DNA from: Bacteroidota bacterium | GTDB taxonomy: Bacteria; Bacteroidota; Bacteroidia; Bacteroidales; VadinHA17 | Assembly (NCBI GenBank): GCA_029552825.1 | Contig: JAKPDL010000151.1 | Coordinates: 23,988 to 87,987, forward strand | Length of the DNA: 64,000 nt | Direction of reading: 5' to 3' | Part shown: one piece after another, positions 12,211-15,746 of the stretch | Layout: each line of letters opens with the position of its first letter | How positions within the stretch are numbered: position 1 is the stretch's first letter | Made by a program: the position numbers and the translations under genes | The notes under the pieces: generated by a model | Seen by the model: the letters and a program-made list of their open reading frames with translations, nothing else | Told to the model about the DNA's origin: nothing | The model's database searches: none

Positions 12211-14085
12211 ATGGAATTCAATTATGATATTGTAGTAGTAGGTGGTGGGCATGCTGGATGTGAAGCAGCTCATATTGCAGCAAAAATGGGTGCTAGAACT
12301 GTGCTGATAACGATGGACATGACGAAATTTGCTCAAATGTCATGCAATCCTGCAATGGGTGGAATAGCCAAAGGCCAGATTATAAGAGAAATTGATGCAT
12401 TAGGAGGAATGAGCGGGATTATAACAGATAAAAGTATGATACAATTCAGGATGTTGAATAGATCGAAGGGACCTGCAATGTGGAGTCCGAGGGCGCAATG
12501 CGATAGACAAATGTTCTCAAGAGAATGGAGAAAGGTACTTGAAAATACTGAAAATCTTTATATATGGCAAGAACCTGTAGTTAAAGTCATTATACAGGAG
12601 AATAAAGTAAATGGAATAGAAACAATATCAGGAACAAAATTTAATTCAAAAGCTGTTATTATAACTGCGGGAACATTTTTAAATGGTTTAATACATGTAG
12701 GATTAAAAAATTATCAGGGAGGAAGAACCGGAGAATTGGCGTCAACTGGTTTAAGTGATCAATTAAGAGATGAAGGATTCATTGTAGGAAGGTTAAAAAC
12801 AGGGACAAGTGCAAGAATTGATGGTAGGAGCTTGAATTTTTCGAAAATGATTGAGCAAAAGGGTGACGGAGATGGAAGATGTTTTTCTTTTATGCATAAT
12901 AAGTTATTTATTAAAAATGAAAAAAGTTGTTATATAACTTATACTAATGAAGAAGTACATGAAGAGTTAAGAAAGGGATTGAAATTTAGTCCTTTGTATA
13001 CAGGAATAATAAAAGGAAGAGGTCCAAGATATTGTCCAAGCATAGAAGATAAAATCGTAACGTTTAAAGAAAAGAAATCACATCAAATGTTTATAGAGCC
13101 TGAAGGATGGGAAACAAATGAATATTATATAAATGGATTTGCTAGTAGCTTGCCGCTTGATGTTCAATTGAAAGCGTTAAGAAAAATACCAGGTCTTGAA
13201 AATGTTGAAATTTTCAGGCCTGGATACGCAATAGAATATGATTATTTTCCACCAACGCAATTAAAACATAACCTTGAAACGAAATTGGTTGATGGATTAT
13301 TTTTTGCAGGACAGGTAAATGGTACCACAGGCTATGAAGAAGCCGCAGCGCAAGGATTAATAGCAGGGATAAATGCTGTTTTAAAAATTAAAGGAAAGAA
13401 ACCATTTGTGATGACAAGAGATGAATCATATATAGGAGTTTTAATTGATGATCTGGTCATAAAAGGGATTGATGAACCTTATAGGATGTTTACTTCAAGA
13501 GCTGAATACAGAATACTTCTTAGACAGGATAACGCTGACGAAAGATTAACACGAAAAGGATATGAACTGGGAACAATTGGAGAAGATAGAATAAGAAGAT
13601 TAGAGGAGAAAGAAGAAATGGTAAATGAAATTATCGAGTTTGTAAAAAAAGAAAGCATTGAACCAGAAAAGATAAATGAATTTTTAACGCAAAAGGAAAC
13701 CTCATGCTTAATACAAAAAACAAAATTGATAAATATAGCACTAAGACCTCAAATCGGTTTAAAGGAATTACTGGAAAGGGTAAGGAAAGCAAAAGATCTA
13801 AAGGCTTTAAAATCGGAAAGAGTTGATGAAATATTTGAATGTGCCGAAATTAAGATAAAATATGAAGGATATATTAAAAGAGAGAGACAAATTGCTGATA
13901 AAATAAAGAGGCTGGAAACATTAAGAATTCCAGAAGACATAAATTATAATGAATTATTATCAATATCAACAGAAGGAAGACAAAAGTTGAACCGGATAAG
14001 ACCAGAGACCATTGGTCAGGCAAGCAGAATTAGTGGTGTTTCACCTTCAGATATCAATGTTTTGCTTATGTATCTGGGGAGATAA
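12211..14085 (+). CDS. mnmG: tRNA uridine-5-carboxymethylaminomethyl modification enzyme MnmG (GidA)
   Basis: A 624-residue FAD-dependent enzyme which, with MnmE, installs the carboxymethylaminomethyl group on U34 of certain tRNAs. The dinucleotide-binding motif VVVGGGHAGCEAA is at the N terminus, followed by the family blocks NPAMGGIAKG, GRTGELAS and GYEEAAAQGLIAGINA, and the C-terminal helical MnmE-binding domain ending in SGVSPSDINVLLMYL. I chose the ATG at 12211, three bases after ybeY and preceded by GGAG; a GTG at 12184 would add nine residues overlapping ybeY and precede the conserved start. The stop codon lies inside the parS palindrome. In many bacteria gidA lies close to oriC. Confidence 0.97.
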   Translation: MEFNYDIVVVGGGHAGCEAAHIAAKMGARTVLITMDMTKFAQMSCNPAMGGIAKGQIIREIDALGGMSGIITDKSMIQFRMLNRSKGPAMWSPRAQCDRQMFSREWRKVLENTENLYIWQEPVVKVIIQENKVNGIETISGTKFNSKAVIITAGTFLNGLIHVGLKNYQGGRTGELASTGLSDQLRDEGFIVGRLKTGTSARIDGRSLNFSKMIEQKGDGDGRCFSFMHNKLFIKNEKSCYITYTNEEVHEELRKGLKFSPLYTGIIKGRGPRYCPSIEDKIVTFKEKKSHQMFIEPEGWETNEYYINGFASSLPLDVQLKALRKIPGLENVEIFRPGYAIEYDYFPPTQLKHNLETKLVDGLFFAGQVNGTTGYEEAAAQGLIAGINAVLKIKGKKPFVMTRDESYIGVLIDDLVIKGIDEPYRMFTSRAEYRILLRQDNADERLTRKGYELGTIGEDRIRRLEEKEEMVNEIIEFVKKESIEPEKINEFLTQKETSCLIQKTKLINIALRPQIGLKELLERVRKAKDLKALKSERVDEIFECAEIKIKYEGYIKRERQIADKIKRLETLRIPEDINYNELLSISTEGRQKLNRIRPETIGQASRISGVSPSDINVLLMYLGR

Positions 14086-14086
14086 A

Positions 14087-14102
14087 TGTTCCACGTGGAA
14101 CA
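14087..14102. promoter_or_regulatory. parS: parS centromere site 1 (ParB-binding palindrome)
   Basis: TGTTCCACGTGGAACA is a perfect 16-base palindrome and an exact match to the bacterial chromosomal parS consensus TGTTnCACGTGnAACA. The symmetry extends without mismatch to 22 bases (14084-14105), taking in the mnmG stop codon. Known role: ParB loads here as a CTP-dependent clamp and spreads, and ParA/SMC then separate and organise the origin region. A run of seven T follows (14103-14109), so in RNA the same palindrome could also act as a terminator for mnmG. Confidence 0.9.
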
Positions 14103-14129
14103 TTTTTTTAAATTTTAAAATTTATTTTC

Positions 14130-15746
14130 ATGATATCTGGCAATTTGATAGATATTTTCGAAAGAACAATATACCCTGCTGAGATTGAGATAGAGAACGG
14201 CAGGATAAGAAAGATAAAGAGAAAAGAAAGAAATGAGGAATTTTACATAATACCCGGACTAATTGATTCCCATATCCATATAGAGAGTTCAATGTGTACA
14301 CCGGGGTCATTTTCTGAAGAAGCTGTTTCACGTGGAACAACAGCAGTAGTTTCTGACCCTCATGAAATAGCAAATGTTCTGGGTATTGCTGGAGTTAATT
14401 TTATGATTGAAGATGGACTGAAGGTTCCCTTGAAGTTCTTCTTCGGAGCACCTTCGTGTGTACCAGCCACACCTTTTGAAACTTCAGGAGCTGAAATCGG
14501 AATAAACGATATTGATATGCTCCTGAGCAAACCAGAGATAAAATATCTGGCCGAAATGATGAATTTCCCAGGTGTTATTTATGAAGATAAAGATGTATTA
14601 AGCAAAATAAAAATTGCCCATAAATATAAAAAGCCAGTTGACGGACATGCACCCGGATTATCAGGAGATAACCTGAGAAAATATATTGAGGCTGGTATTT
14701 CTACCGATCATGAATGTGTGACCCTTGAGGAAGCTAAAGAAAAAATAGGCCTTGGAATGAAGGTCATGATTCGTGAAGGAAGCGCTGCAAGAAATCTGGA
14801 TTCTTTAAAGGAACTAATAAGAACAAATCCGGATATGGTCATGTTATGTAGTGACGACCTGCATCCGGAGATGCTTGCAAGAAGGCACATTGGACTACTT
14901 GTTGCACAACTTGTAAATGAAGGTTTTGACCTCTTTGATGTTATACGACTGTGCACCTTAAACCCTACCCGGCACTACAAACTTGAAACCGGACTTCTCA
15001 GAGAAGGCGACCCGGCAGATTTTATTATTGTTGATACTCCTTACAGAATGAATGTTCTGGAGACCTGGATAAACGGGGAGAAAGTCTTCGATCGTGGTAA
15101 ACTACTTTATGAATATAAAGGAGGAACTCCTGCAAACAAATTCAATTGTTCTGAAATAACAACCCAACAAATTTCAGTAAAGATCAGCGGAAACCAGATC
15201 CGTGTAATAGAAGCATTTGATGGACAAATTTTTACAAAAGAAGTAATTGTGCCGGTAAGAAATGATTCATTTATAACTCAAAATCCTTCTGAAGATCTCC
15301 TGAAAATTGTTGTTAAGGACAGATATAATGACTCTTCCCTTGCGGTAGGTTTTATAAAAGGCTTCGGGCTCAAAAAGGGTGCGTTTGCAAGCTCTGTAGC
15401 ACACGACAGCCATAACATCATTTGTGTTGGTACAAATGATAATGATATAGTAAATGCAATAAACGCAATTATTAAACTACGGGGAGGACTATCTGTTGCA
15501 GCGGGTAGTAATATAGAAACGCTTTCGCTACCCATTGCTGGAATAATGTCTGACAGACCGGTAAAAGAGATAGCTGGAAAATACGAAATATTGTCGGGAA
15601 TCGTAAAAGAACTCGGCTGCCAGCTTGAAGCACCCTTTATGACACTATCTTTCATGGCACTGCTTGTAATACCTGAACTTAAGTTAAGTGATCGTGGCCT
15701 GTTTGATTCAAAACAGTTCAAATTTGTTCCCCTCACAGTTAGCTGA
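14130..15746 (+). CDS. ade: Adenine deaminase
   Basis: A 538-residue amidohydrolase that converts adenine to hypoxanthine in purine salvage. Metal-binding HIH (His48 and His50 in PGLIDSHIHIESS), the SDPHEIANV block, the VDGHAPGL segment and the DHECVTLEEA segment are typical of adenine deaminase, as is the C-terminal domain with SVAHDSHN. Length is slightly short of the usual 550-590 residues but all blocks are present. It lies between mnmG and uvrC, a slot often held by apt in Bacteroidales. The second parS site lies within codons 65-70. Base composition is clearly less AT-rich than in mnmG. Confidence 0.94.
   Translation: MISGNLIDIFERTIYPAEIEIENGRIRKIKRKERNEEFYIIPGLIDSHIHIESSMCTPGSFSEEAVSRGTTAVVSDPHEIANVLGIAGVNFMIEDGLKVPLKFFFGAPSCVPATPFETSGAEIGINDIDMLLSKPEIKYLAEMMNFPGVIYEDKDVLSKIKIAHKYKKPVDGHAPGLSGDNLRKYIEAGISTDHECVTLEEAKEKIGLGMKVMIREGSAARNLDSLKELIRTNPDMVMLCSDDLHPEMLARRHIGLLVAQLVNEGFDLFDVIRLCTLNPTRHYKLETGLLREGDPADFIIVDTPYRMNVLETWINGEKVFDRGKLLYEYKGGTPANKFNCSEITTQQISVKISGNQIRVIEAFDGQIFTKEVIVPVRNDSFITQNPSEDLLKIVVKDRYNDSSLAVGFIKGFGLKKGAFASSVAHDSHNIICVGTNDNDIVNAINAIIKLRGGLSVAAGSNIETLSLPIAGIMSDRPVKEIAGKYEILSGIVKELGCQLEAPFMTLSFMALLVIPELKLSDRGLFDSKQFKFVPLTVS
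14324..14339. promoter_or_regulatory. parS: parS centromere site 2, inside the adenine deaminase gene
   Basis: TGTTTCACGTGGAACA matches the parS consensus TGTTnCACGTGnAACA at every fixed position; the two arms differ at one base. It lies 237 bases (centre to centre) from parS site 1 and encodes Val-Ser-Arg-Gly-Thr of the deaminase, so the site is fitted into a coding frame, as is usual for chromosomal parS sites. Confidence 0.85.

What the first reader, a model, noticed from the sequence alone, without database searches (positions are those of the whole stretch)
14084..14339. Two parS centromere sites 237 bases apart, at the mnmG-ade junction and inside ade
TGTTCCACGTGGAACA (14087-14102) and TGTTTCACGTGGAACA (14324-14339) both match the bacterial parS consensus TGTTnCACGTGnAACA at all fixed positions. 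A given 16-base word is expected far less than once in 64 kb, so two within 250 bases cannot be chance. Chromosomal parS clusters usually lie near oriC, so the window is probably in the origin-proximal part of the chromosome. The second site is fitted into a coding frame.
Basis: partly seen in the sequence, partly recalled or inferred. Interest (0 to 1): 0.75.

Follow-up and report, generated by a model that had tools for sequence, protein, structure and literature searches.

The report
Codon-locked bacterial centromere beside mnmG
Two copies of the 16-base parS centromere word, the only two exact ones in this bacterium's assembled genome, sit just after the mnmG gene and inside the neighbouring ade gene, where they likely bind ParB to pull apart newly copied chromosomes; the same word recurs beside mnmG in many related bacteria, so mnmG likely marks where their chromosomes start to replicate.

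Summary
Confirmed and extended. Both sites are exact TGTTNCACGTGNAACA words at the stated coordinates, the only two exact ones in the 3.38 Mb draft genome. The genome has one detected ParB, with a ParA-type gene upstream, on another contig.

The first site has a fixed address. In 32 of 32 testable genomes of the genus (36 sampled, 4 not testable) a parS word, 30 exact and 2 with one mismatch, lies 0-3 bases after the mnmG stop codon. In a class sample it lies within 1.5 kb of mnmG, or beside ybeY, in 36 of 40 exact-hit genomes read, and as a 1-2 mismatch word in 24 of 28 genomes without an exact hit.

In one complete chromosome, one near-complete one and one large contig the GC-skew minimum falls within about 70 kb of mnmG/parS; in the first two, dnaA and parB lie 309-733 kb away.

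The second site is locked into ade codons 65-70: in 11 species chosen by protein sequence, five of its codons never vary, the only such columns among 66 with four or more synonymous codons.

ParB binding is untested.

The parts
14087..14102 (.). parS site 1, perfect 16-bp palindrome TGTTCCACGTGGAACA, one base after the mnmG stop codon
   Evidence: exact match; a parS word (30 exact, 2 one-mismatch) 0-3 nt after the mnmG stop in 32 of 32 testable genus genomes
14324..14339 (.). parS site 2, TGTTTCACGTGGAACA, inside ade codons 65-70 (A-V-S-R-G-T)
   Evidence: exact match; same codon block in 10 other genus genomes with the frame intact (one of them with one mismatch)
12211..14085 (+). mnmG (gidA), tRNA modification enzyme; conserved neighbour of parS
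   Evidence: TIGR00136 828 bits, PF01134 552 bits
14130..15746 (+). ade, adenine deaminase; carries site 2 in frame
   Evidence: TIGR01178 603 bits
11795..12208 (+). ybeY, upstream neighbour of mnmG here and in many relatives
   Evidence: PF02130 96 bits; synteny

Best explanation
The two 16-base words are exact parS sites at a conserved address beside mnmG, where ParB likely loads and, with ParA, would move the newly copied origin regions apart. Shown: the sequences; their being the only two exact copies in the assembled genome; one detected ParB with a ParA-type gene upstream on another contig; the position 0-3 bases after mnmG across the sampled genus and near mnmG in most of the class genomes read; and codon invariance of the ade-internal copy. 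Inferred: that ParB binds both sites, clamps the DNA with CTP and slides outward from them; that ParA pulls the resulting complex; that mnmG lies in the origin region in this species, as the skew minima of relatives indicate; and that the second copy backs up or strengthens the first. The address is probably kept because the centromere must leave the origin region early, so parS stays with origin-linked mnmG even where dnaA and parAB lie hundreds of kilobases away.
For: Exact sites, alone in the genome. One ParB of 120 bits matching solved Noc, ParB and Spo0J chains at E down to 2.6e-56; its residues at the published specificity positions include R173 and G201, the parS-type pair, read off the alignment by me. 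ParA-type gene (AAA_31, 227 bits) directly upstream. Address in the genus: 30 exact and 2 one-mismatch of 32 testable, 4 of 36 not testable. Order: 16 of 16 exact-hit non-genus genomes have a site within 1.5 kb of mnmG. Class: 36 of 40 exact-hit genomes read (35 mnmG, 1 ybeY only; 10 more not read), and 24 of 28 genomes without an exact hit have a 1-2 mismatch word within 1.5 kb of mnmG, against 0.6 expected in shuffles. Origin: skew minima near mnmG/parS in G090, G131 and G050; DnaA-box clusters 4-17 kb from parS in G125, G090 and G060, not reached in 60 randomised sequences each. ade: five consecutive invariant codons in 11 species.
Against: No binding or segregation data. The own genome is a draft, so its skew minimum rests on one 88 kb contig. 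G125 shows no usable skew trend, and in G050 the skew minimum is about 60 kb from parS. No E. coli-type DnaA-box cluster was found in the own contig or in G050, and G078 is marginal with 1 of 60 randomised sequences reaching it. The best-scoring solved relatives of the ParB are Noc chains, and position 184 is lysine as in Noc. Some exact words lie away from mnmG: the only one of G002 and the third of G048, and those of 4 of the 40 class genomes read (two of these on contigs under 8 kb); 4 of 28 genomes without an exact hit have no word with 2 or fewer mismatches near mnmG. The ade copy is absent from 15 genus members in which this part of ade aligned, so it is not essential.
Confidence: 0.9

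Rival explanations
1. The palindrome after mnmG is mainly an intrinsic transcription terminator (6-bp stem, 4-base loop, then T-run), and the match to parS is secondary.
For: In the window the word follows the stop codon almost at once and is followed by seven T.
Against: The T-run is not kept: 6 of 32 genus genomes have six or more T in the next 8 bases, although the stretch is T-rich (mean 4.5 of 8). In other families the same word lies before mnmG, between ybeY and mnmG, and here also inside ade. The central ACGT, which would be a free loop in a terminator, is kept too.
Confidence: 0.05
2. The ade-internal word is not selected as DNA: it is an inherited stretch of coding sequence kept by the protein, and only the mnmG-adjacent site works.
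For: The block lies in a conserved part of the enzyme, and 15 genus members lack the site where this part of ade aligned.
Against: In 11 species with S-R-G at codons 67-69, codons 65-69 are identical in all, while of the other 112 aa-invariant degenerate columns outside codons 65-70 only 2 are codon-invariant (hypergeometric p 7e-7), and none of the other columns of amino acids with four or more codons. The same species serve as their own control for relatedness.
Confidence: 0.15
3. The words are sites of another regulator or a dispersed repeat rather than parS.
For: CACGTG-centred palindromes are used by other DNA-binding proteins (recalled, not tested).
Against: Two copies in 3.38 Mb exclude a dispersed repeat; all 14 fixed positions are matched and a ParB with the parS-type pair of residues is present.
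Confidence: 0.02

Closest known systems
Chromosomal ParABS of Pseudomonas aeruginosa (10 parS, four near oriC; PMC4368675, abstract read)
   Same: Same kind of palindrome; the origin-proximal sites carry the segregation function, and any one of four is enough there.
   Different: Here only two exact sites, 237 bases apart, no dispersed exact ones, and parAB lies on another contig.
parS clusters of the gut bacteria, among them Bacteroides caecimuris and Muribaculum intestinale, in the Hi-C study PMC10197239 (passages read)
   Same: parS clusters and GC skew were used to place the origin, the origin does not always correlate with dnaA, and no homologue of known condensins was found in the two Bacteroidetes.
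   Different: The passages I read name no fixed gene address and no coding-frame site; the present data place parS near mnmG across the class sample.
parS survey of Livny, Yamaichi and Waldor 2007 (not held; recalled only)
   Same: Describes the consensus and its usual origin-proximal location over many bacteria (recalled).
   Different: Could not be read here, so whether it notes the mnmG address is unknown.
Caulobacter ParB and Noc specificity set (PMC7383237, passages read)
   Same: The own ParB has the parS-type pair R173 and G201 (my reading).
   Different: Position 184 is lysine here, one of the residues that the paper finds in Noc and calls permissive.

Membership tests
Chromosomal parS site | Match to TGTTNCACGTGNAACA | tested here: met
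   0 mismatches at both sites
Chromosomal parS site | Few copies, clustered rather than dispersed | tested here: met
   2 exact copies in the genome, both here
Chromosomal parS site | Origin-proximal location | tested here: met
   own contig skew minimum about 14 kb away (local only); large-scale skew of relatives G090, G131, G050; G125 uninformative. For this species itself it is an inference from these
ParABS system | ParB with N-terminal domain and parS-type helix-turn-helix | tested here: met
   PF02195 120 bits; GERR motif and R173/G201 read by eye; CTP use itself not tested
ParABS system | ParA-type ATPase beside parB | tested here: met
   AAA_31 227 bits directly upstream of parB; no NCBIfam cut-off was reached in the 25 rows shown
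ParABS system | parAB near parS and origin (usual layout, not defining) | tested here: not met
   parB on contig C28, dnaA on C76, parS on C14, so distance in this genome is unknown beyond the contigs; in G090 parB is 733 kb and dnaA 425 kb from parS
ParABS system | ParB occupies the sites in cells | not testable with these tools
   needs ChIP-seq or a binding assay
ParB-loaded Smc-ScpAB condensin | ScpA (PF02616) in the genome | tested here: not met
   none found in G000, G001, G023, G050, G078; present in G060, G090, G125. Smc and ScpB not searched

The most novel reading that the evidence does not exclude
The chromosome centromere of the whole class Bacteroidia has one fixed address, mnmG, which marks the replication origin in place of dnaA and parAB; in this genus the adenine deaminase has even been reshaped (S-R in place of the usual x-H) and frozen at the codon level to carry a second centromere, in cells without detectable ScpA.
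Probability: 0.6. Interest if true: 0.75.

Novelty: new variant of a known kind. Interest (0 to 1): 0.62.

Why it matters
Origins are hard to place where dnaA and parAB lie far from them, as in the two long-contig relatives measured here; a parS word beside mnmG would locate the origin region in draft and metagenome-assembled genomes, for instance for growth-rate estimates. The codon-frozen copy in ade would be a clean natural case of a DNA-level centromere constraint overriding synonymous drift, and likely amino-acid choice, in an enzyme. Lineages lacking detectable ScpA yet keeping the parS address would help show what ParB-parS does without that condensin.

Tried and rejected
Terminator reading of site 1: rejected as the main role, six or more T in only 6 of 32. 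First codon test was circular because rows had been chosen by the exact DNA word; replaced by rows chosen by the protein residues. Chance: rejected. Single origin of the ade copy within the genus: on the MnmG tree the label needs 6 changes, at least 3 forced by well-supported branches; shuffled labels need 9.9 on average and 6 of 500 are as low (the one-mismatch G021 and the broken G003 were counted as carriers, and several rows labelled 'none' have no ade in the stretch read), so one gain with losses against repeated gain stays open. DnaA boxes as an origin marker in the own contig: no cluster. G125 skew: flat, no use. I read the parS-mnmG layout of 80 of its 117 loci and use them as named illustrations only, since the pattern itself favours mnmG ends. 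Literature: nine searches, of which four listed only part of their hits, showed no paper that by title or start of abstract describes the mnmG address; only open-licence full text is held, so this is no proof of absence.
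Full report
Observation. The window holds TGTTCCACGTGGAACA at 14087-14102 and TGTTTCACGTGGAACA at 14324-14339, both exact to TGTTNCACGTGNAACA, with no further match at up to 2 mismatches; shuffles expect 0.12. The first starts one base after the mnmG stop codon; the second spans ade codons 65-70, GC[T GTT TCA CGT GGA ACA]. The genes are mnmG and ade by curated models. The window is G000:C14:23988-87987 of a draft of 3,377,220 bases in 237 contigs (97.61% complete), and these are its only two exact sites; two one-mismatch words lie on contigs C150 and C165, whose surroundings I did not read.

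Partners. The genome has one PF02195 match, on contig C28. Its best solved relatives are two Noc chains, followed by ParB and Spo0J chains. Reading its alignment against the four published specificity positions (passages of PMC7383237), it has R173 and G201, the parS-type pair, with Y179 and K184 (my numbering by alignment). A ParA-type ATPase gene lies directly upstream. No parS word with 2 or fewer mismatches lies in the 38 kb read around parB. DnaA is on yet another contig, C76. ScpA was not found in this genome nor in G001, G023, G050 and G078, but was in G060, G090 and G125. This fits PMC10197239, whose passages report no homologues of known condensins in two Bacteroidetes and origins that do not always correlate with dnaA.

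A fixed address. Of 60 relatives, 48 have an exact site. In the genus, 36 sampled genomes counting this one, 32 could be tested: 30 have an exact and 2 (G007, G033) a one-mismatch word 0-3 bases after the mnmG stop codon, 19 of the 32 at 2 bases; in 3 no mnmG was found and in 1 it is cut by a contig end. The only exact word of G002, one of those without mnmG, lies away from the genes of this locus. In the other 24 genomes of the order, 16 have exact sites and all 16 have one within 1.5 kb of mnmG; a third site of G048 lies on another contig without these genes. Of the 8 without, 3 (G042, G043, G055) have a one-mismatch word beside mnmG, 3 gave no mnmG, 1 has mnmG cut, and 1 has none in a stretch that ends 301 bases past mnmG. 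In the class sample of 80 genomes including this one, 51 have exact sites (the reversed control pattern hit 1 of the 80). I read 40 of the other 50: 35 have mnmG within 1.5 kb of a site, 1 has ybeY only, and 4 (G071, G084, G110, G113) have neither; G071 and G113 are contigs under 8 kb. Of the 29 without an exact site, mnmG was found in 28; within 1.5 kb of it 21 have a one-mismatch word, 3 a two-mismatch word and 4 none, against 0.0 loci at one and 0.6 at two mismatches expected from mononucleotide shuffles. In several families the word flanks mnmG on both sides or lies between ybeY and mnmG, also in named flavobacteria such as Dokdonia pacifica and Aequorivita capsosiphonis.

Origin. In G090, whose main contig is 2.85 Mb of a 2.9 Mb genome in 2 contigs, 40 samples of 20 kb put the cumulative GC-skew minimum between 1.28 and 1.35 Mb, and the full reading of 91 kb there puts the local minimum at 1.344-1.346 Mb; parS is at 1.347 Mb, dnaA at 0.92 Mb and parB at 2.08 Mb. 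In G131, one contig of 2.27 Mb, 20 samples of 4 kb plus the mnmG locus put it between 1.45 and 1.50 Mb; mnmG is at 1.44 Mb, dnaA at 1.13 Mb, parB at 2.12 Mb. G131 itself has only a two-mismatch word there. In G050, a 1.09 Mb contig, skew turns from negative to positive near 0.36 Mb; parS is at 0.423 Mb, a short opposite turn lies at 0.44 Mb, and dnaA and parB are on other contigs. G125 is uninformative. G078 and G060 were read only over 80 and 40 kb and have local minima near parS. The own contig turns from negative to positive at about C14:23-24 kb, the left edge of the window, 14 kb from site 1; this is one 88 kb contig, and part of the strong positive skew there may come from genes lying on one strand. 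Clusters of DnaA-box-like words lie 3.7, 16.9 and 7.9 kb from parS in G125, G090 and G060 (0 of 60 Markov-randomised sequences reach them), marginally in G078 (1 of 60), and not in G000 or G050.

The copy inside ade. In 10 intact genus sequences, this one included, the codon block is GCT GTT TCA CGT GGA ACA; an eleventh (G021) has ACG at the end. To avoid choosing rows by the DNA word, I took the 11 with S-R-G at codons 67-69 by protein: of 118 aa-invariant degenerate columns 7 are codon-invariant, and 5 of these are codons 65-69 (hypergeometric p 7e-7); among 66 columns of amino acids with four or more codons, only those five. The genomes were fetched for having a parS word anywhere, mostly the one at mnmG; two (G022, G033) were read at ade because of the ade site. 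One more carrier of the exact word (G003) has a broken ade frame and was dropped. In the 15 genus genomes where this part of ade aligned without the site (one of them, G032, with a fragmented ade), position 68 is His in 14 and Gln in 1, where carriers have Arg (counted by hand). Four of them (L031, L032, L042, L043) read TGTTCCACATGGAACA there, one base from parS. Outside the genus, Marinilabiliaceae UBA5488 has an exact word at the same codons with P-R instead of S-R, and Carboxylicivirga A043 a one-mismatch one. On the MnmG tree the trait needs 6 changes, at least 3 forced by well-supported branches. So protein and DNA sequence seem jointly shaped by the site; that is inference from sequence.

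Mechanism. By established knowledge of ParABS, ParB binds parS, closes as a CTP clamp and slides outward, and ParA acts on the complex to separate sister origins. In P. aeruginosa any one of four origin-near parS sites is enough (abstract of PMC4368675). Applied here, site 1 would be the main loading site and site 2 a second one. Each of these steps is inferred for this species.

Verdict. An ordinary parS pair in sequence, but with two points that I did not find in the papers searched: an address beside mnmG shared across the class sample and separate from parAB and dnaA, and a second centromere held in an enzyme gene by frozen codons.

Noticed in passing
L372 (G089:C24) 13202-13810 and L373 (G089:C40) 1116-2175: One class relative has 12 exact parS words, seven of them spaced about 99 bases apart after ybeY at a contig end and three beside mnmG on another contig: a tandem centromere array that probably broke the assembly.
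   Followed up: partly
L117, L129, L135, L118 at 4104, L133 at 6391: Exact parS words lie inside the mnmG coding sequence in some beta-proteobacterial and Bacteroidales loci, so coding-frame centromeres near the origin may have arisen more than once.
   Followed up: no
L027 (G003), L024 (G032), L034 (G027): ade is fragmented or frame-broken in three genus members, and in G003 the exact parS word persists in the broken gene.
   Followed up: no
L031, L032, L042, L043; L066, L348, L357: The word TGTTCCACATGGAACA (one base from parS) recurs, four times at ade codons 65-70 and three times near mnmG.
   Followed up: partly
G000:C14:22952-23275, just left of the window: Very AT-rich intergenic stretch beside a gene for an RpiB-type isomerase at the skew turn; a candidate origin region, without an E. 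coli-type DnaA-box cluster.
   Followed up: partly
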